Part shown: one piece after another, positions 3,379-64,000 of the stretch | Numbering within the stretch: position 1 is the stretch's first letter | Layout of the letters: each line of letters begins with the position of its first letter | Assembly (NCBI GenBank): GCA_027886175.1 | Contig: JAJNNQ010000137.1 | Span: 30,490,001 to 30,554,000 of the forward strand | Source: Phylloscopus collybita | Taxonomy: Eukaryota; Chordata; Aves; Passeriformes; Phylloscopidae | Length of the DNA stretch: 64,000 nt | Direction: 5' to 3' | Notes under the pieces: model-generated | Databases searched by the model: none | Seen by the model: only the letters and a program-made list of their open reading frames with translations | Told to the model about the DNA's origin: nothing | Position numbers and translations under genes: made by a program

Positions 3379-3383
3379 GGATA
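3379..3383. repeat. Left target-site duplication (GGATA) of element 1
   Basis: The five bases GGATA directly precede the left LTR and recur directly after the right LTR at 9970-9974. A 5 bp duplication is usual for ERV-L-type integrases. The perfect match shows one intact integration rather than a recombined or rearranged copy. Confidence 0.93.
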
Positions 3384-3853
3384 TGTCTTGGTTTAGAAAG
3401 ACAGGTATCTGCCAGGGAAACTGAGGTTCCCCTAGGATGGAGAATACCAACCCCTCGCACCCCGACGAATTATAATTTTGCAATCAAGGGCTCTCAGGCA
3501 AAAAATGTTGGGAATAGGAATAACAGTTCTTTACTAGGAGGTATTAACAATACAAATATGATAGGAAACAAAACCACCCAACCAACCAAACAAATAAACA
3601 AATAAACAATAATTTTAGAAGAAAACCCTGACAAAGTCAGAGTTTCAATCTGACCCTGTGATTCAGGATGTTGATAACAGTCCGAACGTAAACAGTCCAA
3701 ACACTTCTGGAGTGGCAGACGTGATCCTGTTGGAGCAGAGATGATTCTGCGAAGAAACCGGTTCAGGGACGGCCAGGAGGGAGACAGGATGACGAGCACA
3801 GGAGACGAAGAAGCTCTTCCCACACCGCCACGAAGGAAGCGCCGCGCACCCCG

Positions 3854-3941
3854 CTCCTGCAGCAGGGCCGAACCACTCCTGCAGCAGGGCCGAACCCCTC
3901 CTGCAGCAGGGCCGAACCACTCCTGCAGCAGGGCCGAACCG
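3854..3941. repeat. 22 bp minisatellite in the 3' LTR, four copies
   Basis: Four head-to-tail 22 bp units each contain CTGCAGCAGGGCCGAACC and differ mainly at the last base. The starts are 3854, 3876, 3898 and 3920. The same four units occur in the other LTR at 9704-9791. The repeat is GC-rich and lies upstream of the LTR core shared with element 2. Confidence 0.95.
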
Positions 3942-3945
3942 CCAA

Positions 3946-3983
3946 CCCCCGGCCACCCCCCCCTCCCCCCCACCCCCCACCGC
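3946..3983 (-). other. G-rich tract in the 3' LTR, possible G-quadruplex
   Basis: The plus strand is almost all C, in runs of five to eight, so the element's sense strand has at least four closely spaced runs of five or more G. Such a pattern can form a G-quadruplex. It lies between the octamer and the 22 bp minisatellite. The equivalent tract in the 5' LTR is 9796-9833. Folding is inferred from sequence only. Confidence 0.6.
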
Positions 3984-4004
3984 CAGGGCATGAGATGTAT
4001 AGAA

Positions 4005-4012
4005 ATGCAAAT
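4005..4012 (-). promoter_or_regulatory. Octamer (POU-type) motif in the element 1 LTR
   Basis: ATGCAAAT on the plus strand (ATTTGCAT on the element strand) is the classical octamer bound by POU factors such as Oct-1. The copy in the 5' LTR is 9855-9862. It is notable here because the same octamer is the core of the large tandem array at 51.9-55.6 kb. Binding is not shown. Confidence 0.5.
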
Positions 4013-4122
4013 GCACCGCACAGGCTGGGGAAGGTAACAATGGCCTATCAAGGTGGGTCATCAGGCCTCAAAACAGATGTAAATAGAATACACAAAACCC
4101 AGCTCCACAACCCAAGACAACG

Positions 4123-4133
4123 TTCCACCCCTT
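4123..4133 (-). other. Polypurine tract candidate of element 1
   Basis: On the minus strand the purine run AAGGGGTGGAA lies three bases before the 3' LTR. This is where retroviruses prime plus-strand DNA synthesis. The run is broken by one T and does not touch the LTR, which is slightly atypical. Confidence 0.65.
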
Positions 4134-4198
4134 ATTCTATTACCATCTGTATCATACCTAAATTAATAAACTCCACTATACAGAATGAACCCTCACAC

Positions 4199-7100: not shown

Positions 7101-7381
7101 CACGGGGCCTCTGGGCCAGTCACAATGGGGTGTTTCTGCCACCCATTCCCAGTTAAACTCACTTCGGCTTCCACTACAGTCAGCTGCTGGGACCCTCCTG
7201 TCACCCCAGAAATAGAAATGGGTTCTGTTCCTACATACCCTGATGGCATCAGGGTACATTGGGCACCAGTGTCAACCAAAGCCGTGTATTTTTGTGGGTC
7301 AGATGTGCCAGGCCATCGGATCCACACAGTCCAATAGATCCGATTATCCCTTTCCTCTACCTGGCTAGAGGCAGGGCCCCT
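4199..7381 (-). CDS. Element 1 pol: protease, reverse transcriptase, RNase H, integrase
   Basis: This is an open frame of 1,060 codons starting just after the gag UAG and in the same frame, so it is probably made by readthrough rather than from its own start. Numbering from the first GTG (7327), the protease motif LVDTGA is at residues 17-22. The RT has motif-A Asp232, LPQGW at about 264-268 and YIDD at 294-297. RNase H acidic residues are near D604, E642, D666 and D736, with HVDAH at 715-719. The integrase has a zinc finger H763/H768/C797/C800 and the triad D830, D889, E925, with exactly 35 residues between the last two. No dUTPase was recognised and no env follows. All catalytic residues I looked for are present and there is no internal stop. 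The CHGL-containing RT block argues for ERV-L rather than a gammaretrovirus. Confidence 0.95.
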   Translation of the reverse strand, partial: RGPASSQVEERDNRIYWTVWIRWPGTSDPQKYTALVDTGAQCTLMPSGYVGTEPISISGVTGGSQQLTVVEAEVSLTGNGWQKHPIVTGPEAPCILGIDYLRNGYFKDPKGYRWAFGVAAVETEEIKQLNTLPGLSDDPSAVGLLRVEEQQVPIATATVHRRQYRTDRDSVTPIHEMIRKLESQGVVSKAHSPFNSPIWPVRKPSGEWRLTVDYRGLNEVTPPLSAAVPDMLELQYELESKAAKWYATIDIANAFFSIPVAAECRPQFAFTWRGVQYTWNRLPQGWKHSPTICHGLIQDALEKGEAPDHLQYIDDIIVWGNTAMEVFEKGEKIIQILLEAGFAIKRSKVKGPAQEIQFLGVKWQDGRRQIPTEVINKITAMSPPTNKKETQAFLGAIGFWRMHIPEYSQIVSPLYLVTRKKNDFHWGPEQQHAFAQIKQEIAHAVALGPVRTGPEVKNVLYSAAGSHGLSWSLWQKVPGETRGRPLGFWSRSYRGSEANYTPTEKEILAAYEGVQAASEVIGTEAQLLLAPRLPVLGWMFKGKVPSTHHATDATWSKWIALITQRARIGNPNRPGILEVITNWPEAENFSLTDEEEQVTRAEEAPPYNQLPAEETRYALFTDGSCRIVGMNRKWKAAVWSPTRQVAHATEGEGGSSQLAELKAVQLALDIAEREKWPKLYLYTDSWMVANALWGWLERWKKANWKRRGKPIWAADEWKDIAIRVGKLPVKVRHVDAHVPKSRANEEHRNNEQVDQAARIKVSKVDLDWQHKGELFLARWAHDASGHQGRDATYKWARDRGVDLTMNSISQVIHDCETCAAIKQAKRVKPLWYGGRWSKYKYGEAWQIDYITLPQTRQGKRYVLTMVEATTGWLETYPVPYATARNTILGLEKQVLWRHGTPERIESDNGTHFKNSLINTWAKEHGIEWIYHIPYHAPAAGKVERCNGLLKTTLKALGGGTFRNWEVNLAKATWMVNTRGSINRAGPAHSTPLHTVDGDKVPVVHMRGILGKTVWVNPTLGKGEPTRGIVFAQGPGNTWWVMQKDGKTSCVPQENLILSEN

Positions 7382-7386
7382 CTAGC
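7364..7386 (-). promoter_or_regulatory. gag-pol UAG stop in a perfect hairpin: candidate readthrough signal
   Basis: The gag stop TAG (7384-7382 on the minus strand) lies inside the 5' arm of an inverted repeat. Arm GCTAGAGG pairs with CCTCTAGC, 8 of 8, around a 7-base loop. Pol continues in the same frame with no other stop. Murine leukaemia virus also uses UAG readthrough to make Gag-Pol, though there the pseudoknot lies downstream of the stop. Element 2 keeps the UAG and six of the eight pairs. Function is inferred. Confidence 0.6.
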
Positions 7387-9142
7387 ACTGGTTATCCCCT
7401 CCCTGAGCATACATACTAGAGGTTCCTTCAAGGGGATTCAACACAGCATTGGCAGCTTGGTTATAGGAGGCTGAGGCTACTTTCATTTTCGTAGATCCCC
7501 CTTGGTGATTGTTCCTCTCCTTGAGCTCACGCACCCGTGCTGCCAGGACAGAAGTGGGTTTCCCATCCCACATTCCCATGTCTTCCCCATGGTCACGCAG
7601 ATAAAACCACAGGTCAGCTCTTGGGGTGTACCCTCTCTCTCGAGCTGGGGGTCGTTGGGCTCTAACTCTGGGGCCTGTGACTCGCACTGGTGCCACATTG
7701 GAACTGTTTGTCCTCATCTCCTCCCTCACCCCCCTTATCTCTTCTTTGAGTTCTTTAACCACGGCAGAGATATGAGCCTGCATCGGGCCATTGATCATAC
7801 TTTCATAATTCCTAAGCTTATTGGCAACAGACCCCACTGTCTCTCGATTGTCCTCAGCATTAATTGTTGCAATAAAGGTGGTGTACTGAGATGGCCCTAG
7901 ATTTGCCAGATTCCACAACATCTGCCCTGTGCATTTAACCTTGTCAGGGTCATTATCATGCTGTCCACTCCTCCCAAAAAGTACCTCCAGCACCGCCACT
8001 TCCCTCAGCTGTTGGATCCCTTCCTCCAGAGTTTTCCAGCGCATTCTATGGTGGTGCTCCTGCATTCTTTCTTTGTGGATAAATCTCTCTCTCACACTCA
8101 TTAAAAGCCGCTCCCAAAGGGAAAGGGGTCCTGGCTCTCTTACAAATACCTGATTTATACCTGAGTCCTGGGTCAAGGGTCCCAAATTCCTTGCCTCACC
8201 ACTGTCCAATTGCACACCAGTACCCATGAGGTCCCATACCCGAAGTAGCCAGGCTGTGTAAGCCTCACGCCCCCGCCGTACAATATCTTTTTGCAGGTTA
8301 CGGAGACTTTCATACGACAGGGACTCGGTGATGATCTGAACATGTGATTCCCCTGCAGGTTGTGAGGGCCCTCCTTTCTTATTGTCTGGGTTTGCTGTTT
8401 TCACCTTAGATTTCTTTGTTTCCACAGGGGCAACTGCCGCTGGCTGTGACTGCCCCTGTGGTTCAGCTGGGACCTGAGCAGTTGTAATCTCTGTGGGTTT
8501 CATTGCTGCACCATCAGGCTCTCTTTTGTCAGGGCAGGGGAAGGATTTCCCACTAGCTGGGGAAATGTACTCCCTCAGCATCTGGCCCATCTTCTCCTGC
8601 ATCTCCTTCATCAGAGCCCCCACCCAAACCGGGTGGTTTATCTCTGAGGCAGGCTGTGGGGCAGGAGCGGACTCTTGGGCTGCATTCTTATTCTCTGGGG
8701 TACTTATTAAGGTGCTTACCCAGGCCAATTTCCCCTTATCTCTGAATGCCAAACAGAACAGGCATACCAGCAACACCAGCCACTGTATGATATCATTAGC
8801 ACTCAGAGATTTCAACCCTTCAAAAACTGGTGGGGTGGACCCAAAAAACTGTGTGAAGGGCTGGGAGAAAATTTCCCCCGGTGCCATTTCCTTACAATAG
8901 GTACCATTGTTAAAGTAACCCCAGAAGCACAGAGTTAGCCTATGATAGCTATGAATCCATGTGCTTGCTTTCCAGAGGAAGTTAAAAATCCATGAATTTC
9001 TCACCTTATTAATCCACAAAATAAACTGAATGCCAGCCACAGTAGCCTTAGTCATAGGACCCATATTTACATAAGGAGTAGCAAATGGCAGAAATACAGC
9101 CACCACCACGTGCCACCCAAACCAGGGAAAGCTAGACCACAT
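7382..9142 (-). CDS. Element 1 gag (membrane-type N-terminus)
   Basis: This ORF of 586 codons begins at the first ATG after the primer site, 91 bases downstream of the 5' LTR. Hydrophobic stretches lie at about residues 8-25 and 34-46, and a strong one at 118-134, followed by a Pro/Ala/Lys-rich linker (about 150-265). A helical, Trp- and Leu-rich region from about 270 to 440 resembles a capsid (YTAWLLRVWDL, SLWERLL) and has a close counterpart in element 2. The C-terminal part is Arg/Pro-rich and I see no CCHC zinc knuckle, somewhat as in foamy viruses. It ends at a UAG followed in frame by pol. Identity as Gag rests on position and the match to element 2; no database search was possible. The membrane segments are unusual for a Gag. 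Confidence 0.85.
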   Translation of the reverse strand: MWSSFPWFGWHVVVAVFLPFATPYVNMGPMTKATVAGIQFILWINKVRNSWIFNFLWKASTWIHSYHRLTLCFWGYFNNGTYCKEMAPGEIFSQPFTQFFGSTPPVFEGLKSLSANDIIQWLVLLVCLFCLAFRDKGKLAWVSTLISTPENKNAAQESAPAPQPASEINHPVWVGALMKEMQEKMGQMLREYISPASGKSFPCPDKREPDGAAMKPTEITTAQVPAEPQGQSQPAAVAPVETKKSKVKTANPDNKKGGPSQPAGESHVQIITESLSYESLRNLQKDIVRRGREAYTAWLLRVWDLMGTGVQLDSGEARNLGPLTQDSGINQVFVREPGPLSLWERLLMSVRERFIHKERMQEHHHRMRWKTLEEGIQQLREVAVLEVLFGRSGQHDNDPDKVKCTGQMLWNLANLGPSQYTTFIATINAEDNRETVGSVANKLRNYESMINGPMQAHISAVVKELKEEIRGVREEMRTNSSNVAPVRVTGPRVRAQRPPARERGYTPRADLWFYLRDHGEDMGMWDGKPTSVLAARVRELKERNNHQGGSTKMKVASASYNQAANAVLNPLEGTSSMYAQGGDNQC

Positions 9143-9208
9143 TATTCTGGCCAGTGGGCTTTTATCTAATACTCAAGAACTGTTATTCCTCTCTCTCAAT
9201 GCCCTCGT

Positions 9209-9228
9209 GCCCCACTCGTTGGGCGCCA
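9209..9228 (-). other. Primer binding site of element 1 (tRNA-Lys type, with 2 extra bases)
   Basis: Five bases after the LTR the element strand reads TGGCGCCCAACGAGTGGGGC. This is the site complementary to the 3' end of tRNA-Lys1,2 except for two extra bases in its middle. Element 2 has the unexpanded form. Leader length from LTR to gag ATG is only 91 bases. Confidence 0.8.
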
Positions 9229-9233
9229 AAATC

Positions 9234-9969
9234 TGTCTTGGTTTAGAAAGACAGGTATCTGCCAGGGAAACTGAGGTTCCCCTAGGATGGAGAATACCAA
9301 CCCCTCGCACCCCGACGAATTATAATTTTGCAATCAAGGGCTCTCAGGCAAAAAATGTTGGGAATAGGAATAACAGTTCTTTACTAGGAGGTATTAACAA
9401 TACAAATATGATAGGAAACAAAACCACCCAACCAACCAAACAAATAAACAAATAAACAATAATTTTAGAAGAAAACCCTGACAAAGTCAGAGTTTCAATC
9501 TGACCCTGTGATTCAGGATGTTGATAACAGTCCGAACGTAAACAGTCCAAACACTTCTGGAGTGGCAGACGTGATCCTGTTGGAGCAGAGATGATTCTGC
9601 GAAGAAACCGGTTCAGGGACGGCCAGGAGGGAGACAGGATGACGAGCACAGGAGACGAAGAAGCTCTTCCCACACCGCCACGAAGGAAGCGCCGCGCACC
9701 CCGCTCCTGCAGCAGGGCCGAACCACTCCTGCAGCAGGGCCGAACCCCTCCTGCAGCAGGGCCGAACCACTCCTGCAGCAGGGCCGAACCGCCAACCCCC
9801 GGCCACCCCCCCCTCCCCCCCACCCCCCACCGCCAGGGCATGAGATGTACAGAAATGCAAATGCACCGCACAGGCTGGGGAAGGTAACAATGGCCTATCA
9901 AGGTGGGTCATCAGGCCTCAAAACAGATGTAAATAGAATACACAAAACCCAGCTCCACAACCCAAGACA
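9234..9969 (-). repeat. 5' LTR of element 1
   Basis: This 736 bp LTR starts TGTCTTGG at 9969 on the minus strand and ends CCAAGACA at 9234. It differs from the 3' LTR at 9850 only, by my reading. It would drive transcription leftward through gag and pol. It contains the octamer (9855-9862), the G-rich tract (9796-9833) and the 22 bp minisatellite (9704-9791). I could not assign a confident TATA box or poly(A) signal. Confidence 0.95.
9704..9791. repeat. 22 bp minisatellite in the 5' LTR, four copies
   Basis: This has the same four units as at 3854-3941, with the same copy number and the same variant order. Identical arrays in both LTRs mean no copy-number change since integration. Confidence 0.95.
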
Positions 9970-50700: not shown

Positions 50701-51473
50701 TAGAGCCTGTTGTGTTCTATAGAATGGAAACAGTTTCACACATTTCATTGAGAAACAAGGCAAAGTGTAAGAAGAATGATTAACTGAATTTCCTATATGC
50801 ATATAGCAAATCTTTTTTGAGCACTGCTTTTCTGCAAATCACTGGTTGCTGGAATTTGTATATATAGTATAGTTACATGGCTTTTTTTAAAAAAATAAAT
50901 GTTTCCTGGGGTTTTTTTTACAACATAAAGAAAGGTAGACAGAATTATCATTTCAGCTTTGGAAACCTGCTCAAAAAAGCATTCACAACACAGCAGCATC
51001 ATTATAATCATAGCAGACAAAAACTGCCAAACTTTTGCCCCATTTCAATCATGATGTGGCTGAACTATACCAGACTATAATAACAAATATTTTCTGTGAA
51101 AATAGACTATTACCAGAAAAATATTACAATGTATATTTTTCCTAGAATAATGTGTCAACCTTTGAGTAGAGTTTAGTGTAAAATCTTGCCAGTGAAACAA
51201 TGTTTTTTTCTTTTTTAAGTGACAGTGAAAGAAAGCATTCACAACAGGTATAATTTTTGCAGTATCGACACAATGGTAAGTACCATAGCTGTCAAGAATT
51301 TGGAGGTTTCATGTGACATTTTTACACACACTAATATCAATTGCCTTCCTGTCCTCCTTTATATTTAACATTCAGAATCCTGGATTTCTCAAGTGTTATA
51401 AATAAGCAGGGCAGGAGATGATTTTTAACACCTTATATACCTTTATTTAAAAGGGAAAGCTCAAGGAACTGCC
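38716..51473. other. Gene-free AT-rich DNA
   Basis: Nearly 13 kb have no recognisable gene. All frames are short (at most about 117 codons) and lack family resemblance. A possible very short CR1 tail remnant is at 44658-44685. A five-unit TTA microsatellite is at 47677-47691. Confidence 0.5.
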
Positions 51474-51873
51474 TACGCCTCTGCTGCTGCTCCCTCAATC
51501 ATGGCCGTGGAGGAGGCCTGAGTCGATCCTGCTGCTGACGCTGCAGCGCCTGGAGTTCTGCCTCACAAAAAAGTTCCCAGGAACACATTGGGCTCACTTT
51601 GGTCCAGGAGTGTGTTTCTTTCTGAGTGTCTTTTAGGTTATGGTGAGCAGATGAGAAGGGTTTACAGATGGCTGGCCAGATAGCTTCATGTCTTCCCAGC
51701 CGGGAGGCATTCTTTATGGGTCTGGATTATCTGCTGACTCGTTGTTGCCAGGGGTTTTTGGTGTTAACTGTAGTAAACATTCTGCAAGGCTTCATGGGCG
51801 TCTCTGCACTTTCCATGGCACATCCACTCTGGGGGCACTTCCGGTTTCGGCACTTCCGGTCTGGGGGCACGTC
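51474..51873. other. GC-rich left flank of the array with paired ETS-type sites
   Basis: This is a distinctly GC-richer stretch than the DNA to its left. Near the array it has two CACTTCCGG motifs (51836-51844 and 51851-51859), each the core of an ETS/GABP-type site. On the minus strand there is a 75-codon stop-to-stop frame (51726-51499) with no recognised homology, and an AATAAA further left near 51445. It does not match the 3' half of either LTR in this window. It may be the far end of the element carrying the array, or the DNA into which the array was placed. Confidence 0.45.
51836..51859 (-). promoter_or_regulatory. Two ETS-type motifs next to the array
   Basis: CCGGAAGTG occurs twice on the minus strand, 15 bases apart, immediately beside the CpG-dense array. 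Paired ETS sites in CpG-rich DNA are common in avian and mammalian promoters. Activity here is inference. Confidence 0.45.
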
Positions 51874-52689
51874 CGCGGCGCAAATTATGCAAATTGCGCA
51901 ATATGCAAATTACGCGGCGCGGCGCGAATTATGCAAATTACGGGGCGCGGCGCGAATTATGCAAATTGCGCAATATGCAAATTACGCGGCGCGGCGCGAA
52001 TTATGCAAATTGCGCAATATGCAAATTACGCGGCGCGGCGCGAATTATGCAAATTGTGCAATATGCAAATTACGCGGCGCGGCGCGAATTATGCAAATTA
52101 CGCGGCGCGAATTATGCAAATTACGCGGCGCGGCGCGAATTATGCAAATTGCGCAATATGCAAATTACGCGGCGCGGCGCGAATTATGCAAATTGCGCAA
52201 TATGCAAATTACGCGGCGCGGCGCGAATTATGCAAATTGCGCAATATGCAAATTACGCGGCGCGGCGCGAATTATGCAAATTGTGCAATATGCAAATTAC
52301 GCGGCGCGGCGCGAATTATGCAAATTACGCGGCGCGAATTATGCAAATTACGCGGCGCGAATTATGCAAATTGCGCAATATGCAAATTACGCGGCGCGGC
52401 GCGAATTATGCAAATTGCGCAATATGCAAATTACGCGGCGCGGCGCGAATTATGCAAAGTGCGCAATATGCAAATTACGCGGCGCGGCGCGAATTATGCA
52501 AATTACGCGGCGCGGCGCGAATTATGCAAAATTGCGCAATATGCAAATTACGCGGCGCGGCGCGAATTATGCAAATTACGCGGCGCGGCGCGAATTATGC
52601 AAATTACGCGGCGCGAATTATGCAAATTACGCGGCGCGGCGCGAATTATGCAAATTACGCGGCGCGAATTATGCAAATTACGCGGCGCG

Positions 52690-52830
52690 GCGCGAATTAT
52701 GCGAATTGCGCAATATGCAAATTACGCGGCGCGGCGCGATTTATGCAAATTACGCGGCGCGAATTATGCAAATTACGCGGCGCGAATTATGCAAATTACG
52801 CGGCGAATTATGCAAATTACGCGGTGCGGC
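52690..52830. repeat. Higher-order block in the array, copy 1
   Basis: This block has a rare combination of variants: GCGAATTGCG (52701), GATTTATGC (52738), a shortened GGCGAATTATG junction (52802) and a CGGTGCGG variant (52822). It recurs in the same order 930 bp later (53620-53760), so array pieces of about 0.9 kb have been duplicated. Confidence 0.85.
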
Positions 52831-53414
52831 GCGAATTATGCAAATTACGCGGCGCGGCGCGAATTATGCAAATTACGCGGCGCGAATTATGCAAATTACG
52901 CGGCGCGGCGCGAATTATGCAAATTACGCGGCGCGAATTATGCAAATTACGCGGCGCGGCGCGAATTATGCAAATTACGCGGCGCGAATTATGCAAATTA
53001 CGCGGCGCGGCGCGAATTATGCAAATTACGCGGCGCGAATTATGCAAATTACGCGGCGCGGCGCGAATTACGCGGTGCGGCGCGAATTATGCAAATTACG
53101 CGGCGCGGCGCGAATTATGCAAATTACGCGGCGCGAATTATGCAAATTACGCGGCGCGGCGCGAATTATGCAAATTACGCGGCGCGAGTTATGCAAATTA
53201 CGCGGCGCGGCGCGAATTATGCAAATTACGCGGCGCGAATTATGCAAATTACGCGGCGCGGCGCGAATTATGCAAATTACGCGGCGCGAATTATGCAAAT
53301 TACGCGGCGCGGCGCGAATTATGCAAATTACGCGGCGCGAATTATGCAAATTACGCGGCGCGGCGCGAATTATGCAAATTACGCGGCGCGAATTATGCAA
53401 ATTACGCGGCGCGG

Positions 53415-55085
53415 CGCGTATTATGCAAATTACGCAATATGCAAATTACGCGGCGCGGCGCGAATTATGCGAATTGCGCAATATGCAAATTACACGGCGC
53501 GGCGCGAATTATGCAAATTACGCGGCGCGAATTATGCAAATTGCGCAATATGCAAATTACGCGGCGCGGCGCGAATTATGCAAATTACGCGGCGCGAATT
53601 ATGCAAATTACGCGGCGCGGCGCGAATTATGCGAATTGCGCAATATGCAAATTACGCGGCGCGGCGCGATTTATGCAAATTACGCGGCGCGAATTATGCA
53701 AATTACGCGGCGCGAATTATGCAAATTACGCGGCGAATTATGCAAATTACGCGGTGCGGCGCGAATTATGCAAATTACGCGGCGCGGCGCGAATTATGCA
53801 AATTACGCGGTGCGGCGCGAATTATGCAAATTACGCGGCGCGGCGCGAATTATGCAAATTACGCGGCGCGAATTATGCAAATTACGCGGCGCGGCGCGAA
53901 TTATGCAAATTACGCGGCGCGAATTATGCAAATTACGCGGCGCGGCGCGAATTACGCGGTGCGGCGCGAATTATGCAAATTACGCGGCGCGGCGCGAATT
54001 ATGCAAATTACGCGGCGCGAATTATGCAAATTACGCGGCGCGGCGCGAATTATGCAAATTACGCGGCGCGAATTATGCAAATTACGCGGCGCGGCGCGAA
54101 TTATGCAAATTACGCGGCGCGAATTATGCAAATTACGCGGCGCGGCGCGAATTATGCAAATTACGCAATATGCAAATTACGCGGCGCGGCGCGAATTATG
54201 CGAATTGCGCAATATGCAAATTACACGGCGCGGCGCGAATTATGCAAATTACGCGGCGCGAATTATGCAAATTGCGCAATATGCAAATTACGCGGCGCGG
54301 CGCGAATTATGCAAATTACGCGGCGCGAATTATGCAAATTACGCGGCGCGGCGCGAATTATGCAAATTACGCGGCGCGAATTATGCAAATTACGCGGCGC
54401 GGCGCGAATTATGCGCATTGCGCAATATGCAAAGTACGCGGCGCGGCGCGAATTATGCAAATTACGCGGCGCGGCGCGTATTATGCAAATTACGCAATAT
54501 GCAAATTACGCGGCGCGGCGCGAATTATGCGAATTGCGCAATATGCAAATTACACGGCGCGGCGCGAATTATGCAAATTACGCGGCGCGAATTATGCAAA
54601 TTGCGCAATATGCAAATTACGCGGCGCGGCGCGAATTATGCAAATTACGCGGCGCGAATTATGCAAATTACGCGGCGCGAATTATGCAAATTACGCGGCG
54701 CGGCGCGTATTATGCAAATTACGCAATATGCAAATTACGCGGCGCGGCGCGAATTATGCGAATTGCGCAATATGCAAATTACACGGCGCGGCGCGAATTA
54801 TGCAAATTACGCGGCGCGAATTATGCAAATTGCGCAATATGCAAATTACGCGGCGCGGCGCGAATTATGCAAATTACGCGGCGCGAATTATGCAAATTAC
54901 GCGGCGCGGCGCGTATTATGCAAATTACGCAATATGCAAATTACGCGGCGCGGCGCGAATTATGCGAATTACGCAATATGCAAATTACGCGGCGCGGCGC
55001 GAATTATGCGAATTACGCAATATGCAAATTACACGGCGCGGCGCGAATTATGCGAATTACGCAATATGCAAATTACACGGCGCGG
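53415..55085. repeat. Repeated variant cassette in the right part of the array
   Basis: A cassette with GTATTATGC, ACGCAATATGC, GCGAATTGCGC and then TACACGGCGCGG recurs starting at about 53418, 54477 and 54708. Related, partly different forms occur near 54140, 54910 and 55010. This is a second level of higher-order structure, different from the 51 bp dimers that fill 52.8-53.4 kb. Confidence 0.8.
53620..53760. repeat. Higher-order block in the array, copy 2
   Basis: This copy has the same variant series as 52690-52830 at an offset of 930 bp. A later shared marker, a unit lacking its ATGCAAATT part and joined to CGGTGCGG (53061 and 53945), is offset by 884 bp. Units have therefore been lost or gained between the two blocks after duplication. 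Confidence 0.85.
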
Positions 55086-55623
55086 CGCGAATTATGCAAA
55101 TTACGCGGCGCGAATTATGCAAATTGCGCAATATGCAAATTACGCGGCGCGGCGCGAATTATGCAAATTACGCGGCGCGAATTATGCAAATTACGCGGCG
55201 CGGCGCGAATTATGCAAATTACGCGGCGCGAATTATGCAAATTACGCGGCGCGGCGCGAATTATGCGCATTGCGCAATATGCAAAGTACGCGGCGCGGCG
55301 CGAATTATGCGCATTGCGCAATATGCAAATTACGCGGCGCGGCGCGAATTATGCAAATTACGCGGCGCGGCGCGAATTATGCAAATTACGCGGCGCGAAT
55401 TATGCAAATTACGCGGCGCGGCGCGAATTATGCAAATTACGCGGCGCGGCGCGAATTATGCAAATTACGCGGCGCGAATTATGCAAATTGCGCGGCGCGG
55501 CGCGAATTATGCAAATTGCGCAATATGCAAATTACGCGGCGCGGCGCGAATTATGCAAATTGCGCAATATTCAAATTACGCAATATGCAAATTACGCGGC
55601 GCGCATTATGCACATTGCGCAAT

Positions 55624-56081
55624 ATGTGGTTCTGTTGGAGTAGAGATGATCCTGAGAGAAGGGTCCAGTGATGGTGAGAAGGGTCCAGTCTTCCTCCAGG
55701 AATCCAGTAGAACCAGATGAGATGTTCTTGTCAAAGCAGTGATTCCATCTGGTAGCTCTTGTCTCCTCTGGGAGTCCAGTGGATAAATGCTCCTCGTGAG
55801 GTCTCAAACGCTGGGTTATATCCAGTTGGGAATGCTTGGCTCCTCCCCCTGGGCAGAGCATCTCACAATGGGATGATCTCATCCTATGAGTCATGCAATG
55901 GGTCCTTGATGGCCCATTAAACCGAGATAACTCCCGGTGGAAGTTATCTATGAGTCATGTGGCAAGGCATTGTTGGGCTCGTTAACAGAAGATAAGGAAA
56001 ACACTGCCCCACCTCGGCTCCAACGGCTCATGGGGATAGAATACATACCTTGGGCACAATTTTACATTGTAACCTAGGACA
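55624..56081 (-). mobile_element. Truncated ERV-L-like LTR (5' part only), minus strand
   Basis: On the minus strand this starts TGTCCTAGGTTACAATG at 56081 and follows the element 2 LTR (58393 onward) for about 440 bases with scattered differences. It has one extra block containing a second TGACTCA (AP-1 type; 55951-55957, the other at 55887-55893) and an inverted repeat (GATAACT and AGTTATC). The TATA-like TATAA is at 55820-55816. Similarity stops after AGAACCACAT, where the array begins; the rest of the LTR is absent. No target duplication was found, so it is either a broken solo LTR or part of a larger composite. Confidence 0.85.
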
Positions 56082-58392
56082 CTGTACCTCTGAAGGGAGC
56101 CTATCATGATAGAGACACACTTTGGTTCTAGCAGTGTTCACCTCTTCAGAATCACAAGTATGTCAGTATGGACACATCTGTGCAGCCAAGCACCTGCTTC
56201 AGACTGAGAAGGCAAAATCCAAATGTCCGTCCATCTGACTCCCCTCCATGGCTTACTCCACTCCAACTTTTGAAGGAATTGCAGGGAGGTATATGTGGAT
56301 GATCCTCTGAAACATCAATCAAGATCTCTCATTCAACTCTAAGGTCAGAACCACAATACCTATAGCCTTTTCTTGACTACCTGCTTAGGTGCTTTACAGC
56401 ATTCCTCTTTCCTACATATAAAAATTATGGGATTGCTTCTTGTCAACTCAGTGGTAGCACTGCAACAAAGGTCAATAAGACAGTCAGGCTTTGTTCACAC
56501 AACTCACCTCTCTGTCTTTCTCTCTTTAAATTGTTAATCCACTTTAGGTCTGCTAGAGTCTTTGACATAAATCTTGCCCCTGGGGTCAGCTACTTTGTGC
56601 TTCTGGGTGCAATGAAAGTGATGGATTGGAGTTGAATTCTTGAAATTTAACAGAGAATGGGGGATATGCCTTTTCTAAGCATCTATACATACGCTCAAGA
56701 TGACTGCACACATTTGAATCTTGGCAGCCTGGAGTTTTGCGCCTTCCCTTGTGCCTGGAGTATGACTTTCACCTGACCTTCATCCTGCAAAGAAGGGGGG
56801 ATGCAGTGACTACCAAATTTAAAACTGGTAGCACTTTGTTTTCTCCTCTTTTTCAAATGAATCAGCTTTTATTTCTGCAGTGTTTGTATGTCTGTGTGTG
56901 TGTGTGTGAATGTGTATGTAATTGAGACTGCTTCCAAAAACACAAATACAGAGCTACACAGGCAAGGAGAGCAACATGGCAACATGGCTTACAAAATTAT
57001 TTTAACCCATGCAAACTGAATTTGTGCATTTGCATCTGGCACATGGGACATAATAACATAACCTATCCCCACAGCCTACCTAGACACTCATAAGATGTAA
57101 ACCCTCAGTAAAAAAACCCAACAAAACAGAAAAACAAAACAAAAACAAACAAACAAACAAACAAACAAAAAACCAACCCCAAAACAGAGCAGCCTATTTT
57201 CAGAGAGAAAAACAACTACCAGATTCTTTCTCTTCCTCCTTCTCTTGCTACAATGTGTGCTATTGCATGCTGTCCTGGCTCTGCTCCTCACCGCCCACAA
57301 ACCAAGAGATTAAATTCATTGGCTTTGGTTTCCCCATGAATCTGTATGAGTTATCAGGCAGCTCCAGCTACCCCTTCTGCATTATTTTTCACTGGAGTTT
57401 TGAGCAACAGTTGGAGTTGCTGGAGCAACAGTAAATCTTTAGTTCATTTCTTTCCCCATCCCCTTGTTGCTTGCAGGGTCAGACAGAGGGAACCTCCAGT
57501 CCCACCAAACAGAAACTACTCTCAAAATGACAAATGCCCAAGGCATGAACACCTCCACACACTCAGGTGTTATATTATAGCGGCAACTGGATCAGCCAGG
57601 ATACCAATAAGACAATGCAGACTTCTGGCTTATTCATTCAGGCAAAAAAAAAATAAATAGATTATTCTAAGAAACGACATCTTTATTGATCTAAGGACAT
57701 TCTTGACAGTAATTAAGTGTGAAATACTTCAGACTCCTAGAATAAATTCTGATATTTTTTTCAGTAGCATGAAGGCATATCCCTCCCTGCATTTCAAGCA
57801 CTAGCAATTCCAGAACAACAAGGGGATATTTATATGCACGTAAAAGATCTCGTATTATAGGGAATGACATTTCAAACACTAAATATCCAAAGTAAACTGA
57901 AAATTACTCAAAACTAGACTTTCTTTTCAGATCTGCACCAGGTGTCACAGCACTGGGGCCCTCCTACTCAAGCCAAAGCATCTCCCCTCAGTTTCATTTC
58001 TGTTCTGCACTGTCCCAAGGCATTCATGAAAATGACATTTATTCACAGGTATACTTCTTTAAATCAAATATCTCTGATATATCCATTCAATATTTCAGTC
58101 AAAAAAAAATCATCTGTGCTGACTACATTCACCTGAAGAAATGCAGTGAGCAAGAAAAAAAAGTTCATTTTCTAGCTACATTTTTTGGCTGTGGTGGCTG
58201 TTTATGAAACAGCAGTTACTGAGTGCCATGGGCACCATGTTACAGTGGCCACACACCTTTACTGCACAAATCCCAGTGACAACTGCCTGCACATTTTTAG
58301 TACAGCTCTCTATGTGTTACTGTGTGTCAATGGCAACTGTGCTGCTTGACACAGAACTTGTAAATCTTCAGGAGTGAAAATGCTTCACCAGG
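56082..58392. other. Unique spacer between two oppositely oriented LTRs
   Basis: No gene was recognised. There is a (TG)8 run at 56893-56908 and an A/C-rich CAAA repeat at about 57121-57172, cleanest from 57145 to 57168. Short frames (up to 104 codons) have no recognisable features. Confidence 0.55.
57121..57172. repeat. (CAAA)n microsatellite
   Basis: An A/C-rich tract with about six clean AAAC units in its centre and imperfect units on the left. Confidence 0.9.
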
Positions 58393-58986
58393 TGTCCTAG
58401 GTTACAATGTAAAATTGTGCCCAAGGTATGTATTCTATCCCCATGAGCCGTTGGAGCCAAGGTGGGGCAGTGTTCTCCTTATCTTCTGTTAACGAGCCCA
58501 ACAATGCCTTCCCGGAAGACGTTATCTCTGCTTAATGGGCCATCAAGGACCCATTGCATGACTCATAGGATGGAATCACACCACTGTGAGATGCTCTGCC
58601 CAGGGAGAGGAGCCAAGCATTCCCACCTGGATATAATCCAGGGTTTGAGACCTCACTAGCAGCTTCTATCCACTGAACTCTCAGAGGAGACGAGCTACCA
58701 GACGTTTCTACAGGAGTCACGTCTTTGACAAGAACATCTCATCTGGATTCCTGGAGGAAGACTGGACCCTTCTCATCATTACTGGACCCTTCTCTCTCAG
58801 GATCATCTCTGCTCCAGCAGAACCACATCTGCCGCTCCAGGAGGATTTCCGGACTGCTTCAAACACCCTGACCAACAGGGTGTTAGGTTGTATCATTCCA
58901 TTGATTTCACCTTTTTTCCTCTCTTCTTCTATTAAATTGTATCTCTGACTGGGAGTCTCACTGGTTTTTGCTTTCATACCAGCACA
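58393..58986 (+). repeat. 5' LTR of element 2
   Basis: This 594 bp LTR starts TGTCCT and ends AGCACA, a near-inverted repeat. Visible signals are an AP-1 type TGACTCA (58559-58565), a TATAA at 58632-58636 and a poly(A) signal ATTAAA at 58931-58936. The TATAA sits in the centre of an inverted repeat (CCTGGAT 58626-58632, ATCCAGG 58636-58642). A block near 58800-58845 (ATCATCTCTGCTCCAGCAG and following) is shared with the LTR of element 1, and the truncated LTR at 55.6 kb stops inside this block. Confidence 0.9.
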
Positions 58987-58991
58987 TCTTT

Positions 58992-59009
58992 TGGCGCCCA
59001 ACGTGGGGC
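58992..59009 (+). other. Primer binding site of element 2 (tRNA-Lys1,2 type)
   Basis: TGGCGCCCAACGTGGGGC lies five bases after the LTR and is, as I recall it, the standard complement of the tRNA-Lys1,2 3' end. Foamy viruses and some betaretroviruses use the same primer; mammalian ERV-L is named for a leucine tRNA. Confidence 0.9.
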
Positions 59010-59071
59010 TCAAGGTACTGAGAAAAGTCAGAATTACAATTTTGTATTGGGGAAAAGAACACCTGTTCACT

Positions 59072-60982
59072 ATGATGCTCAGCATGCTTACATTTGTCTT
59101 GTACCTAGCTCTCTATATCTTTCCGCACATGGGGCACTATCTGCAGATCTTAATACTTTGGTGTAAACCAGGATACAGCATTAAAATTGCTTTATTGGTC
59201 TACTATGTCTATTGCATGCTAACCTGCAAGGCAATGAGCATAATTTGGAGTATGTACTCAACTTTGTTTGCTTATCCTGGTCTAGGATGTTTTGTTTGGG
59301 GCCTCAACAATCTCACCCAGCCGCTGTGGGGAGGGGTAAAGAATAATTTTTTCCAGTCTTTCAGGCCTGATACAGCAGTTTTTGAAAATATTGAATTCTC
59401 TCTGGATACCAAGGACAGCATAATGTTGTTGTTGATGCTGTTTTGTCTTCTCTGCACAGCCTGCACCATGCTTAGAAACAGAACACCACATGATGTACAT
59501 GATGTAGTGCAGCGTCTTCTTGAGGCAGAAGAGAAAAGAAGGCAACAGTGTCCGAGTCTACGCAGACGGTCACAGAGGAAACAGAAGCCAAAAAACCAGA
59601 CAACAGTGTCCAAGTCTGTGCAGACTGTTGCAGAGGAAACAGAAGCCAAAAGCAAGCCAACAGTGTCCGCATCTACACAGACTGTCACAGAGGAGAAAGG
59701 AACCAAAATCAAGGCAACAGTGCCCACGTCTACACAGACTGCCACAGAAGAGAAAGAAGCACCAAGCAAAGCCACAACGTCTGTGTCCATGCAAGTTGTC
59801 ACAGAGGAGAAAGAAGTCAAAAATTGCAGCATTTCCACACAAACCATCACTGAACTGGAACAGCCTAAACCGGTAGCAGTTGCCCCTGTTCAGAAGAAGA
59901 AATCAAAGAGCAAATCAGTCCGCATAGTAACTGACGAGGATGCAGCAGGACCTTCGCACCCAGCAGAGGAGACAGAGCCAGAGATCATCACTCGCTCTCT
60001 GTCCCTGGGTGAGCTGCGTGACCTGTGGAGGGAATTCACCCGTCAGCCAAACGAGTCCATCCTGACCTGGCTGCTCCGCATCTGGGACAATGCAGCCAAT
60101 GGCACCATTCTGGATGGAAGTGAGGCCAGGCAACTGGGATCTCTGTCCCGGGATGTGGTCATTGACCAGGGCATTGGAAGGACCCAAGGAACTCTCAGCC
60201 TCTGGCGGCAACTGCTGACATGTGTGAAGGACAGGTACCTTTGTAAAGAAGACCTCCAGGTACACCAAGGAAAATGGAGCACAATGGAACAAGGTATCCA
60301 ATGCCTGAGGGAATTGGCTGTGCTGGAGATCATTTTCTCAGAAGACGAAAGATTTCCTAAAAGCCCAGATGAAGTTCAGTGCACATCACAGATGTGGTTG
60401 AGATTTGCATGACTGGGACCAGAGATGTACTCCCGTTACCTGGCAACGCTGCAATGGAGGGCAGGTGAGGACAGGGTGGGCGTCTTGGTCAACAAACTAA
60501 GAATTTACGAGGATACTGTCACCGCCCCATTTCGTACCCATGTCTCATCTGTGGAAACAAGGCTGGCTGAGCAAGTCCGAAGCTTGATTTAAGAGGGCCA
60601 TCAGAAACTGAAAAAAGAACTGAAGGAAGAAGTTTACCACGTCTCGCCAGAACCAACAAGAGTCTCTGCCATTAGGAGCAGGCGTCCCCCAGCCAGAGAG
60701 AGAACATACACTCCATGAGGTAACCTCTGGTCTTTTCTTCGGGAGCATGGAGAAGACATGAGGAAGTGGGATGGCAAACCCACCTCCGCCTTAGCAGCCC
60801 GGGTACGTGAACTGAAAAGAGGGACACCTACCACGAGGAGTTCATCTAGAGTCAATGCTGCTCCAGTCTCTCGTGCACGGAACTCCAGACAGTATAGGAA
60901 TGATGAAGTGACTGATCCTCTCGAAGGGACCTCAGGAACGCATTTACAGGAAGATAGCAACGTGCATCGTGAGCAGGAATAG
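59072..60982 (+). pseudogene. Element 2 gag, broken
   Basis: The natural start is the ATG at 59072, 85 bases after the LTR; an upstream frame begins inside the primer site and should be ignored. About 446 codons are open, then TGA at 60410-60412, TAA at 60590-60592 and TGA at 60716-60718 interrupt the frame before the normal UAG at 60980-60982. The N-terminus is strongly hydrophobic (about residues 3-17, 23-31, 37-50 and 117-132). A Lys/Glu/Thr-rich linker with 19-residue repeats follows, then a capsid-like part matching element 1 (ILTWLLRIWD, LSLWRQLL). The first repeat unit reads best in another frame, so small near-compensating indels are likely. No zinc knuckle is visible. Confidence 0.85.
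59543..59850 (+). repeat. 57 bp (19-residue) tandem repeat inside element 2 gag
   Basis: Unit starts are at 59543, 59601, 59658, 59715 and about 59772, followed by a partial unit. The first interval is 58 bp, the others 57 bp, so an extra base in an A-run shifts the first unit's frame. Encoded cores are SVQTVAEE, STQTVTEE, STQTATEE and STQTITEL; one unit has SMQVVTEE. Element 1 lacks these repeats. Confidence 0.9.
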
Positions 60983-60998
60983 AGGGGCCCTGCCTCTA
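60980..60998 (+). promoter_or_regulatory. gag-pol UAG hairpin, element 2
   Basis: TAGAGG, containing the stop, pairs with CCTCTA around a 7-base loop identical to that of element 1. The two outer pairs of element 1 are lost because the base before UAG differs. Pol continues in frame. This supports a real readthrough signal in the ancestor of both elements. Confidence 0.6.
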
Positions 60999-63900
60999 GC
61001 CAGGTAGAGGAAAGGGACAATCGGATCTATTGGACTGTGTGGATCCAATGGCCTGGCACATCTGACCCACAAGAGTACACGGCTTTGATTGACACTGGCT
61101 CTCAATGTACCCTGATGCCATCAAGGTATGTAGGAACAGAATCTGTTTCTCTTTCTGGAGTGACAGGAGGGTCCCAGCAGCTGACTGTAGTGGAGGCCGA
61201 AGTGAGTTTAACTGGGAACAGGTGGCAAAAACACCCCATTGTGATTGGCCCAGAGGCCCCATGCATCCTTGACATAGATTTTCTCAGAAATGGATATTTC
61301 AAAGACCCAAAAGGATATCGCTGGGCTTTTGGGATAGCTGCTGTAGAGACAGAAGACATCAGACAATTGAATACCTTGCCTGGCCTCTCCAATGACCCCT
61401 TTACTGTGGGACTGCTGAGAGTTGAAGAACAACAAGTACCAATCGCCACAGCAACAGTGCACCGTCAGCAGTACCGCACCAACAGAGACTCAGTGACCCC
61501 AATCCATGAGATGATTCGTAAACTGGAGAGCCAAGGGGTGGTCAGCAAGGCTCGTTCACCCTTCAACAGCCTCATCTGGCCTGTGCGTAAGTCCAGTGGA
61601 GAATGGAGACTGACAGTGGATTACCGTGGTCTGAATGAGGTCATGCCACCACTGAGTGCTGCTGTGCCAGACATGTTGGAGCTTCAGTATGAGCTGGAGT
61701 CCAAGGCAGCAAAGTGGTACGCGACCATCGACATTGCCAATGCTTTCTTCTCCATTCCTTTGGCAGCAGAGTGTAGGCCCCAGTTTGCTTTCACCTGGAG
61801 GGGTGTGCAGTACACCTGGAACCGACTGCCCCAGGGGTGGAAGCACAGTCCCACAATCTGCCATGGATTAATCCAGACTGCATTGGAAAAAGGCAAGACT
61901 CCTGAACATCTCCAGTATATTGATGACATCATTGTGTGGGGGAACACAGAAGTGGAAGTTTTCAAGAAAGGAGAGAAGATTATCCAGATTTTACTGAAAG
62001 CTGGTTTTGCCATTAAGCGAAGTAAGGTTAAGGGACCGGCTCGAGAAATCCAGTTCCTAGGAGTCAAGTGGCAAGATGGACGTCGCCAGATACCCACAGA
62101 AGTAATCAACAAGATCACCGCAATGTCTCCACCAACCAGCAAGAAGGAAACGCAAGCTTTCCTAGGTGCCATAGGCTTTTGGAGAATGCACATTCCTGAG
62201 TATAGCCAGTTGTAAGTCCTCTCTACCTGGTTACCTGCAAGAAGAACGATTTCCACTGGGGCCCTGAACAGCAGCAAGCCTTTGCCCAGATCAAGCAGGA
62301 GATCGCTCATGCGGTAGCCCTTGGCCCAGTGAGAATAAGACCAGATGTGAAGAATGTGCTCTACTCAGCAGCCAGGAACAATGGCCTGTCCTGGAGCCTT
62401 TGGCAGAAGGTGCCTGGTGAGACTCGGGGTCGACCACTGGGATTCTAGAGTCGAAGCTACAGAGGGTCCGAAACCAACTACACTCCCACAGAGAAGGAAA
62501 TCTTGGCCGCCTATGAAGGAGTTCAAGCCGCTTCAGAAGTAATTGGCACTGAAACGCACCTGCTTCTGGCACCCCGACTGCCGGTGCTGGGGTGGATGTT
62601 CAAGGGAAAGGTTCCTTCCCCGCATCATGCCACTGACACTACTTGGAGCAAATGGATTGCCCTCATTAGGCAGTGCGCCCGTATTGGGAACCCAAATCGC
62701 CCTGAGATTCTGGAAGTTATAACGAACTGGCCTGAAGGTGAGACTTTTGGATTATCCTCTGAAGAAGAAGAGGAGCAAGTGACACGTGCTGAGGAGGCCC
62801 CACCATATAATGAGCTACTGGAGACTGAAAAACGATATGCCCTCTTCACTGATGGTTCCTGCCGAATTATAGGCACTGACCGGAAATGGAAAGCTGCAGT
62901 ATGGAGCCCCACACGACGAGTTGCACAAGCTACCGAGGGACAAGGTGGATCGAGTCAGATGGCAGAGCTTAAAGCTGTCCAGCTGGCTTTGGATATTACT
63001 GAACGGGAGAAGTGGCCGAGGCTCTATCTCTACACCGACTCATGGATGGTAGCTAATGCCCTGTGGGGGATGGCTGAATCGCTGGAAAAAGGCCAACTGG
63101 CAGCGCAGAGGGAAACCCATCTGGGCTGCTGAGATTTGGCAGGACATTGCCACCCGAGTAGAGAAGCTAACTGTGAAAGTTCGACACGTGGATGCGCACG
63201 TACCCAAGAGTCGGGCTAATGAGGAGCATCACAACAATGAGCAGGTAGACAAAGCTGCCAAGGTGAAAGTATCACAGGTGGATCTAGACTGGCAGTGCAA
63301 GGGAAAATTATTCCTAGCTCGTTGGGCCCATGATGCCTCTGGTCATCAGGGAAGAGATGCAACATACCGATGGGCCCGTGACCGAGGGGTGGACCTTACT
63401 ATGGACAGCATCTCACAGGTCATCCATGACTGTGAGACCTGTGCTGCAATCAAACAGGCCAAGCGGGTGAAGCCTCTGTGGTACGGTGGATGATGGTTGA
63501 AGTACAGGCATGGGGAAGCCTGGCAAATTGACTACATCACCCTTCCCCAGACCCGCCAAGGCAAGCACTACGTGCTGACCATGGTAGAAGCAACCACAGG
63601 AGGGTTGGAGACCTATCCTGTGCCTCATGCCACTGCCGGAACACCATCCTGGGCCTGGAAAAACAAGTCCTGTGGAGACATGGCACCCCGGAGAGAATTG
63701 AGTCAGACAACGAGATACATTTTAAGAATGGCCTTGTAAACACCTGGGCCAAAGAACATGGTATTGAATGGATATACCACATCCCTTATCATGCACCAGC
63801 CGCCGGGAAAGTTGAATGGTGCAATGGACTATTAAAGACTACCCTGAAGGCACTTGGTGGAGGAACCTTCAAGAATTGGGATATAAACTTACACAAAGCC

Positions 63901-64000
63901 ACCTGGATGGTAAACACCCGAGGCTCCATCAATTGAGCTGGTCCGGCCCAGTCTGAACCCTTGCACACAGTGGATGGAGATAAAGTCCCTGTGGTACACC
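60983..64000 (+). pseudogene. Element 2 pol, broken and partial
   Basis: This is homologous to element 1 pol along its whole visible length. Protease LIDTGS, RT YIDD, RNase H TDGS and HVDAH, and the integrase zinc finger and start of the catalytic core can all be seen in successive frames. Breaks are: frame loss with TAA at 62213-62215; TAG at 62446-62448; an inserted base near 63068; TGA at 63491-63493; a lost base near 63637; TGA at 63934-63936. Several stops could come from single G-to-A or C-to-T changes at Trp or Arg codons. It cannot encode a full Pol. Confidence 0.93.

What the first reader, a model, noticed from the sequence alone, without database searches (positions are those of the whole stretch)
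51874..55623. A 3.75 kb satellite that is an array of POU octamers with C/EBP palindromes in a CpG-dense setting
Seen directly: nearly every unit contains ATGCAAAT (roughly 150 copies by estimate). A subset forms ATTGCGCAAT directly before ATATGCAAAT, so a C/EBP palindrome abuts an octamer. Each 28 bp unit has six CpGs and almost none are decayed. Known: ATGCAAAT is the octamer of Oct-1/Oct-2/Oct-4-type factors, and RTTGCGYAAY is the C/EBP consensus. Inference: this could act as a sponge or a very strong enhancer for POU/C/EBP factors, or as a germline-unmethylated CpG island. Intact CpGs argue for recent amplification or absence of methylation. I do not recognise it as a named avian satellite.
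Basis: partly seen in the sequence, partly recalled or inferred. Interest (0 to 1): 0.87.

Follow-up and report, generated by a model that had tools for sequence, protein, structure and literature searches.

The report
Dispersed CpG-rich octamer satellite array
A 3.75 kb stretch of short repeats, most of which carry a known gene-switch motif, is one copy of a repeat family scattered through this genome; unlike the DNA beside it, it has kept its CpG sites, as unmethylated DNA would.

Summary
In detail: 138 ATGCAAAT on one strand, 26 ATTGCGCAAT, CpG o/e 2.72 against 0.19 elsewhere. It is not a one-off: the source genome (1.25 Gb) has a shorter sister array 9.5 Mb away, and 15 of 20 further regions read hold arrays of this unit. 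Some are mosaics with ETS-type ACTTCCGG or telomere-like GGGTTA repeats on the same strand. Octamer triples exceed the reversed control 432 to 17 and ETS triples 298 to 8; two other motifs show little or no excess. The window array lies between two truncated interspersed elements. In the duplicated flank, CpGs changed 8.4 times faster than other bases; in the arrays they did not. This favours germline hypomethylation over mere youth. The C/EBP palindrome is not conserved (26 against 2) and the octamer is kept no better than its neighbours, so a POU/C/EBP sponge is unproven. I read it as a self-renewing, CpG-island-like minisatellite prone to recombination; factor binding is plausible but untested.

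The parts
51391..51816 (-). Truncated copy of a high-copy interspersed element (full copies about 730 bp), with AATAAA on the minus strand at about 51447; cut off at 51816
   Evidence: 40 of 306 candidates scored, the window itself included; all cover at least 415 of the 417 bases, the other 39 at 87-90% identity; three copies fetched extend about 300 bp beyond the point where the window copy stops and hold no octamer or ACTTCCGG
51817..51873 (+). Fragment of the ETS-type satellite (GGCACTTCCGGTCTGGG, about 3.6 copies)
   Evidence: TRF, 17 bp period, 51817-51875; matches arrays in L032, L039, L042; two ACTTCCGG at 51837 and 51852
51874..55623 (+). Octamer satellite array: 155 units of 28, 23, 16 and a few other lengths, with near-exact internal duplications of up to 408 bp
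55624..56081 (-). First 458 bp of an LTR, cut off at the array; the full LTR has about 160 bp more
   Evidence: (84% to 58828-58392); same joint in array 2
56082..58392 (.). 2.3 kb duplicated together with LTR and array at C139:21.02 Mb, 98.1% identical; with the LTR it is the internal control for CpG decay
58393..64000 (+). Second endogenous retrovirus copy (5' LTR 58393-58987, Lys-type primer site, name recalled, at about 58992, reverse-transcriptase frame; 3' LTR lies beyond the window); right-hand limit of the duplication

Best explanation
The array is a locally re-amplified, uniform member of an older dispersed satellite family, whose modules are octamer units (TATGCAAATT + CG-rich spacer), at some loci joined to ETS-type units (ACTTCCGG) and telomere-like units (GGGTTA). 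Shown: dispersal, mosaic make-up at some loci, strand consistency, truncation of the neighbouring elements at its edges, shared ancestry with array 2, and no excess of CpG change. Inferred: the uniform copies are kept unmethylated in the germ line (possibly, not shown, by octamer, ETS or CXXC-type binding). This makes them CpG-island-like open DNA. In a lineage without PRDM9, breaks and recombination fall on such DNA; unequal exchange then expands and homogenises the array, and ectopic exchange or break repair moves and joins it to other loci. Copies that stop turning over are methylated and lose their CpGs. Gene regulation or factor sequestration would be a by-product, not the reason it exists.
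For: Dispersed family: 13-mer ATGCAAATTRCGC 394 places (window and array 2 included) against 1 for the reversed control; arrays in 15 of 20 regions read; octamer triples 432 against 17. Mosaic: telomere-like blocks in 5 of these 15 regions, ETS blocks in 2 of the 15 plus the window edge, on the octamer strand with few exceptions; the joint GTTAAATTGNRCAATATGG, or close variants, recurs in L031, L035, L038 and L045. CpG: 18 of 19 array segments have o/e of 1.0 or more, flanks 0.09-0.72; odds ratio for change at CpG 9.7 in the duplicated flank (6 of 40 against 48 of 2684) but 0.55 in the arrays (8 types/1672 against 26/3004), z 4.6. Exchange: internal duplications up to 408 bp, private variants in each sister array, both neighbours truncated at the array, direct duplications abutting the arrays of L027 (about 60 bp) and L037 (17 of 19 bp). 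Birds lack PRDM9 and recombine at promoters and CpG islands (PMC5519329, passages seen).
Against: No methylation, chromatin, binding or recombination data exist here. Variant 'types' are not fully independent events; 6 of 155 and 5 of 53 units, and one CpG transversion type in each array, were left out of the count; the arrays were scored against a consensus and the flank pairwise. GC-biased conversion could also keep CpGs; the control for it rests on 11 changes (P 0.013). Only 2 of 18 array segments tested show a significant flanking duplication. 10 of 15 regions lack telomere-like blocks and 13 of 15 lack ETS blocks.
Confidence: 0.5

Rival explanations
1. Ordinary minisatellite: slippage and unequal exchange amplified an arbitrary CG-rich seed; octamer, ETS and C/EBP matches are chance, and CpGs survive through rapid homogenisation and GC-biased conversion.
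For: Neighbouring non-CpG 8-mers are kept as well as the octamer in the 17 other segments (TATGCAAA 309, ATGCAAAT 309, TGCAAATT 300). W-to-S changes are common among the variants. Reversed control patterns also have some clusters (17 for the octamer, 8 for ETS).
Against: Two families of different sequence, both built round a well-known motif, lie side by side on the same strand in the window, L032 and L039. TGACGTCA triples (87 against 49) and AACCGGTT triples (26 against 28) show little or no such excess; but the ETS motif was chosen after it had been seen beside the arrays. CpG transitions are not raised even against other S-to-W changes.
Confidence: 0.35
2. Functional POU/C/EBP platform: the array works as a strong enhancer or as a factor sponge.
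For: 138 octamers and 26 C/EBP-type palindromes in 3.75 kb; the octamer is present in most units of both sister arrays (138 in 155 units; 51 in 53; units were cut at ATGC, which favours this count).
Against: The C/EBP palindrome drops to 2 in array 2; no preferential retention of the octamer; other arrays of this kind look decayed.
Confidence: 0.12
3. Retroelement cargo: the octamer array is part of an LTR element and was spread by retrotransposition.
For: In L021 array 2 lies between two LTRs of one family with a matching 5-bp direct repeat CTGTA at the outer edges (chance about 0.0015); the family makes 5-bp duplications (GGATA and CTAAG; ACGTG and GCATT, read). Pieces of this LTR family lie near 8 of 17 array loci, the window and L021 included.
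Against: Full copies of the LTR (58393-58987, L021:889-1517) and three full copies of the left element carry no array. In L027 the two nearby LTRs are separate insertions, each with its own duplication. 9 of the 15 fetched regions with arrays had no such LTR match.
Confidence: 0.08
4. Relic of subtelomeric DNA: octamer plus TTAGGG-like blocks were once chromosome-end repeats (a counterpart of CpG-rich TERRA promoters) and became interstitial.
For: Telomere-like blocks in 5 of 15 regions, with a recurrent joint in four of them and fixed orientation.
Against: Eight contig ends read (2.5 kb each) hold no octamer or ACTTCCGG; none shows a terminal telomere run (one has 7 scattered TTAGGG, both strands counted), so the contigs may simply not reach the telomeres. 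10 of 15 regions lack such blocks.
Confidence: 0.15

Closest known systems
Minisatellites / satellite DNA with higher-order structure
   Same: Tandem short units, internal duplications, concerted change within each locus
   Different: CpG o/e of 2.7 without excess of CpG change, and at some loci mosaics of two motif-based families with telomere-like repeats
CpG-rich subtelomeric TERRA promoter repeats of mammals (recalled, not searched)
   Same: CpG-dense tandem repeats, at some loci next to telomere-like DNA
   Different: Here interstitial, with another unit sequence; link to chromosome ends not shown
Interstitial telomeric sequences
   Same: TTAGGG-like blocks inside chromosomes in 5 of 15 regions; in L027 and L037 the array blocks are flanked by direct duplications, as after repair of a break
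   Different: Most of the mass is octamer units, and L027 and L037 themselves have no telomere-like block
CpG-rich macrosatellites such as DXZ4 and D4Z4 (recalled; DXZ4 papers seen only in a search listing)
   Same: CpG-rich tandem array with possible factor binding and methylation-dependent states
   Different: Unit of 16-28 bp instead of kilobases; dispersed over many contigs
Retrotransposon-associated minisatellites (soybean Gmr9/GmOgre, PMC3305785, title and start of abstract seen in a listing)
   Same: Tandem arrays next to LTR elements
   Different: Here the elements are cut at the array and the full copies seen lack it

Membership tests
Minisatellite / satellite DNA | Head-to-tail short units over hundreds of bases or more | tested here: met
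Minisatellite / satellite DNA | Locus-specific homogenisation (private variants) | tested here: met
   window against array 2: ATGCGAAT 9 and 0, TTACACGG 6 and 0, GAATCATGC 0 and 4, GCGACGCGG 0 and 3
Minisatellite / satellite DNA | Length polymorphism between individuals | not testable with these tools
   one assembly only
CpG island | CpG o/e above 0.6 and G+C of about 50% or more over at least 200 bp | tested here: met
   o/e 2.5-2.9 and G+C 0.48-0.56 in the 200-bp steps wholly inside the array
CpG island | Unmethylated in the germ line | tested here: inconclusive
   indirect: no excess of CpG change in the arrays, excess in the flank
POU/C/EBP enhancer or decoy | Motifs conserved beyond the rest of the unit | tested here: not met
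POU/C/EBP enhancer or decoy | Factor binding or effect on expression | not testable with these tools
   no ChIP, ATAC or reporter data
Part of an LTR retroelement | Full-length copies of the element carry the array | tested here: not met
   (the copies seen: two full LTRs of the right-hand family, three of the left element)
Protein-coding repeat | Open frame with relatives | tested here: not met
   Three + frames of 1288-1357 aa are open, as the common units hold no stop codon on + (read from the sequence); 133-aa sample: 2566 candidates, none with E of 0.001 or less
Terminal / subtelomeric satellite | Location at chromosome ends | tested here: inconclusive
   8 contig ends read, none with octamer or ACTTCCGG; none shows a terminal telomere run either

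The most novel reading that the evidence does not exclude
A class of satellites that behave as portable, self-maintaining CpG islands: short units built round promoter-type motifs (octamer, ETS) keep themselves unmethylated in germ cells, thereby attract recombination in a genome without PRDM9, expand and homogenise through it, and seed rearrangements and copies at new loci, until they fall silent, are methylated and decay.
Probability: 0.25. Interest if true: 0.85.

Novelty: new variant of a known kind. Interest (0 to 1): 0.6.

Why it matters
If the CpG result holds in methylation data, these arrays are natural test objects for two open questions: whether clustered factor motifs alone can keep DNA unmethylated in the vertebrate germ line, and whether recombination in genomes without PRDM9 creates satellites at CpG-island-like DNA. 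The sister arrays give a ready-made contrast (same flank, different length), and the more decayed copies may give a time series. At the window site the array marks rearrangement joints on both sides.

Tried and rejected
Gene or promoter of a small gene in the left flank (51400-51816): a 127-codon reading with two stops looked protein-like, but Pfam gave only a match below its cut-off (E 0.081), PDB none and the protein database none. One search then showed the stretch to be a high-copy interspersed element, so the reading was dropped.

Bacterial or viral origin: the 19-mer has 2 single matches in 257 Gb of prokaryote contigs, about what 2 x 257e9/4^19 gives by my arithmetic, and none in viral contigs. 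A 17-mer gave 10 viral contigs with one match each. LTR and left-edge patterns had none.

Coding repeat: open frames follow from the lack of stop codons in the units; no relatives.

Structure: one of three folded unit combinations was more stable than shuffles (28+16+28, z -3.15); the other two were not (z -0.91 and 0.51). Not used further. No Rfam family or tRNA gene in the window.

Target-site duplication round the window copy: none convincing. A first test for flanking duplications took in 25 bp of array on each side, so arrays matched themselves; it was replaced, for which I set array edges by eye and moved those of L037 by 10-12 bp. A grainyhead-like AACCGGTT family: seen in L031, but no genome-wide excess.

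Selection on the octamer: a first look at unit variants seemed to favour it, but the units were cut at ATGC, which biases the count; the comparison of 8-mers shows none.
Full report
WHAT IS THERE. Window 51874-55623 is a tandem array of 155 units (74 of 28 bp, 40 of 23, 35 of 16, 6 others). The 28-mer is ATGCAAATTACGCGGCGCGGCGCGAATT; the 23-mer lacks one five-base step and the 16-mer is ATGCAAATTGCGCAAT or a variant. The octamer occurs 138 times, on the + strand only. ATTGCGCAAT occurs 26 times and ATTACGCAAT 9 times. CpG o/e is 2.72 against 0.19 outside. Near-exact stretches (at most 2 mismatches) of up to 408 bp recur at offsets such as 731 and 884 bp, as unequal exchange leaves behind. Three + frames are open through the array, because the common units contain no stop codon on that strand; a 133-aa sample translation has no relatives.

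NEIGHBOURS. On the right, at 55624, begins the first part of an LTR in minus orientation. A complete LTR of that family, 58393-58987, goes on for about 160 bp where the array stands. On the left, 51817-51873 is a fragment of an ETS-type repeat, and 51391-51816 is a high-copy element that stops exactly there: 40 of 306 candidate copies were scored, the window itself among them; all cover at least 415 of 417 bases, the other 39 at 87-90%. Three copies were fetched; they run about 300 bp further and hold neither octamer nor ACTTCCGG. So the array lies between two truncated elements, and I read its edges as rearrangement joints.

A SISTER COPY. The window is C139:30490001-30554000 of a 1.247 Gb genome. 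A 43-mer has 37 places: 33 in the window array and 4 in a second array 9.5 Mb away. That array (1.25 kb, L021:3479-4734) has the same joint with the same LTR, and 2.3 kb beyond the LTR are duplicated too. The duplicated flank is 98.1% identical (44 mismatches), the LTR pieces 96.8% (14 mismatches). In L021 the array-bearing LTR and a complete LTR 3.2 kb to its left are bounded by the same five bases, CTGTA, and differ by 4.1% (18 mismatches); chance agreement of two 5-mers is about 0.0015. Order of events, inferred: LTR-element insertion, joining of the array to its cut LTR, duplication to the window site with a break inside the array, then separate turnover. Both arrays have private variants and share others (GCGATTTATG, AAAGTACGC, GCGTATTATG).

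A DISPERSED FAMILY. ATGCAAATTRCGC has 324 + 70 places, window and array 2 included, against 1 + 0 for the reversed pattern (only the first 100 places were listed). I read 20 regions round such places: 15 hold an array of this unit by BLAST, matches spanning from about 160 bp to 3.3 kb, and 5 (L041-L044, L046) do not. Octamer triples (spacers 5-25): 344 + 88 against 15 + 2. That listing also shows a few unrelated octamer repeats, for example a 21-bp unit on C46. Triples of ACTTCCGG: 179 + 119 against 0 + 8; this motif was chosen because it had been seen beside the arrays. Two other motifs: TGACGTCA 87 against 49, AACCGGTT 26 against 28 per strand. Triples overlap within an array, so the number of independent arrays and families is much smaller than these counts. 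A triple search for TTGCGCAA did not complete.

MOSAICS. Telomere-like blocks accompany 5 of the 15 arrays (L031, L032, L035, L038, L045); in all five the GGGTTA strand is the main ATGCAAAT strand (in L045 the octamers are 19 against 4). The passage from telomere-like to octamer block reads GTTAAATTGNRCAATATGG or close to it in L031, L035, L038 and L045; L032 does not show it. ETS-type arrays lie next to octamer arrays in L032, L039 and at the window's left edge, again on the same strand (L039: 25 against 3). L042, fetched for one octamer 13-mer and without an octamer array, has 48 ACTTCCGG.

CpG TEST. In the duplicated flank and LTR (window 55624-58392 against L021), bases in CpG context in either copy changed by transition 6 of 40 times and other bases 48 of 2684, a ratio of 8.4. 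This is the usual mark of germline methylation. In the two arrays, scored against the unit consensus, CpG transitions make up 3 variant types over 1278 CpG bases and 5 over 394, other changes 10 types over 2274 and 16 over 730 bases. Pooled odds ratios are 9.7 (flank) and 0.55 (arrays); difference z 4.6. To set GC-biased conversion aside I compared CpG changes only with other S-to-W changes: 8 and 3 types, P 0.013 under the flank's ratio. The sample is small, types are not strictly independent, 6 of 155 and 5 of 53 units were left out, and one CpG transversion type in each array was not counted. Of 19 array segments measured, 18 have CpG o/e of 1.0 or more (L031b 0.58), their flanks 0.09-0.72; TG+CA per CpG ranges from 0.57 in the window to 5.8 in L045 (14.3 in L031b), so less uniform copies look decayed.

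MOTIFS. The octamer is frequent in both sister arrays, the C/EBP palindrome is not (26 against 2). In the 17 other segments ATGCAAAT (309) is no more frequent than TATGCAAA (309) or TGCAAATT (300). So there is no evidence of selection for the octamer over the rest of the core, and sponge or enhancer function is open. That ATGCAAAT is the POU octamer, ACTTCCGG an ETS site, RTTGCGYAAY a C/EBP site, TGACGTCA a CRE and AACCGGTT a grainyhead-type site is recalled.

HOW IT MIGHT WORK. The observations fit DNA that is unmethylated in germ cells while its copies are being exchanged, and that breaks and rejoins. In birds, which lack PRDM9, recombination concentrates at transcription starts and CpG islands (PMC5519329, passages only). 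CpG-island-like arrays would attract exchange, and exchange expands and homogenises arrays. Insertion of ready-made blocks is supported at two loci by direct duplications abutting the array: L027 (about 60 bp, partly an A run; above all 3000 control pairs) and L037 (17 of 19 bp, P 0.0003). L028 (P 0.17) and L030 (P 0.11; by eye also CCCTGGCC on both sides) are weak, and the other 14 of 18 segments have none. Binding of factors as the cause of hypomethylation is inference.

LITERATURE. No paper in the library held any of 12 pieces of the units. Searches for octamer satellites, bird satellitomes, LTR-linked minisatellites, hypomethylated repeats and interstitial telomeric satellites listed nothing that looked the same; the lists were capped and I saw titles and abstract starts only. 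Repeat libraries and named bird assemblies were not available.

Noticed in passing
window 3381-9969 (minus strand): Endogenous retrovirus copy with LTRs 99.7% identical over 739 bp, 5-bp flanking duplication GGATA and a long open pro-pol frame (Pfam RVT_1, RNase_H, rve); a recent insertion. Described only.
   Followed up: partly
window 58393-64000 and on to C139:30554878: Second copy of a related retrovirus, LTRs 93% identical without gaps; the flanking five bases do not match (CCAGG, GGAGT), which suggests recombination at this element.
   Followed up: partly
L035:2160-5832: A 3.7 kb stretch of alternating octamer blocks and degenerate telomere-like blocks, CpG o/e 1.03 over the octamer span.
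   Followed up: partly
L042:650-2083: ETS-type arrays (48 ACTTCCGG) beside GGTTCTAGA repeats, with a stretch of about 170 bp repeated on both sides (1012-1181, 2010-2169).
   Followed up: no
L031:2155-2303: AACCGGTTTGAACTGG-type 30-bp repeat inside an octamer array; no genome-wide excess of AACCGGTT triples.
   Followed up: partly
L030:242-2220 and L021:1517-3487: A 2 kb sequence next to octamer arrays at two loci, 95% identical; in L021 it abuts an LTR where homology to L030 begins.
   Followed up: partly
C46:40317-40450: An unrelated 21-bp tandem repeat also built on ATGCAAAT (ATGCAAATTCCCTCTCCTGGG).
   Followed up: no
C25:4075434-4075754: Tandem repeat with TGACGTCA in units of about 28 bp.
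   Followed up: no
window 51391-51816; contigs C52 and C59: High-copy element of about 730 bp; 18 of the 40 scored copies lie on contigs C52 (10) and C59 (8), which may be repeat-rich (sex chromosome?).
   Followed up: no
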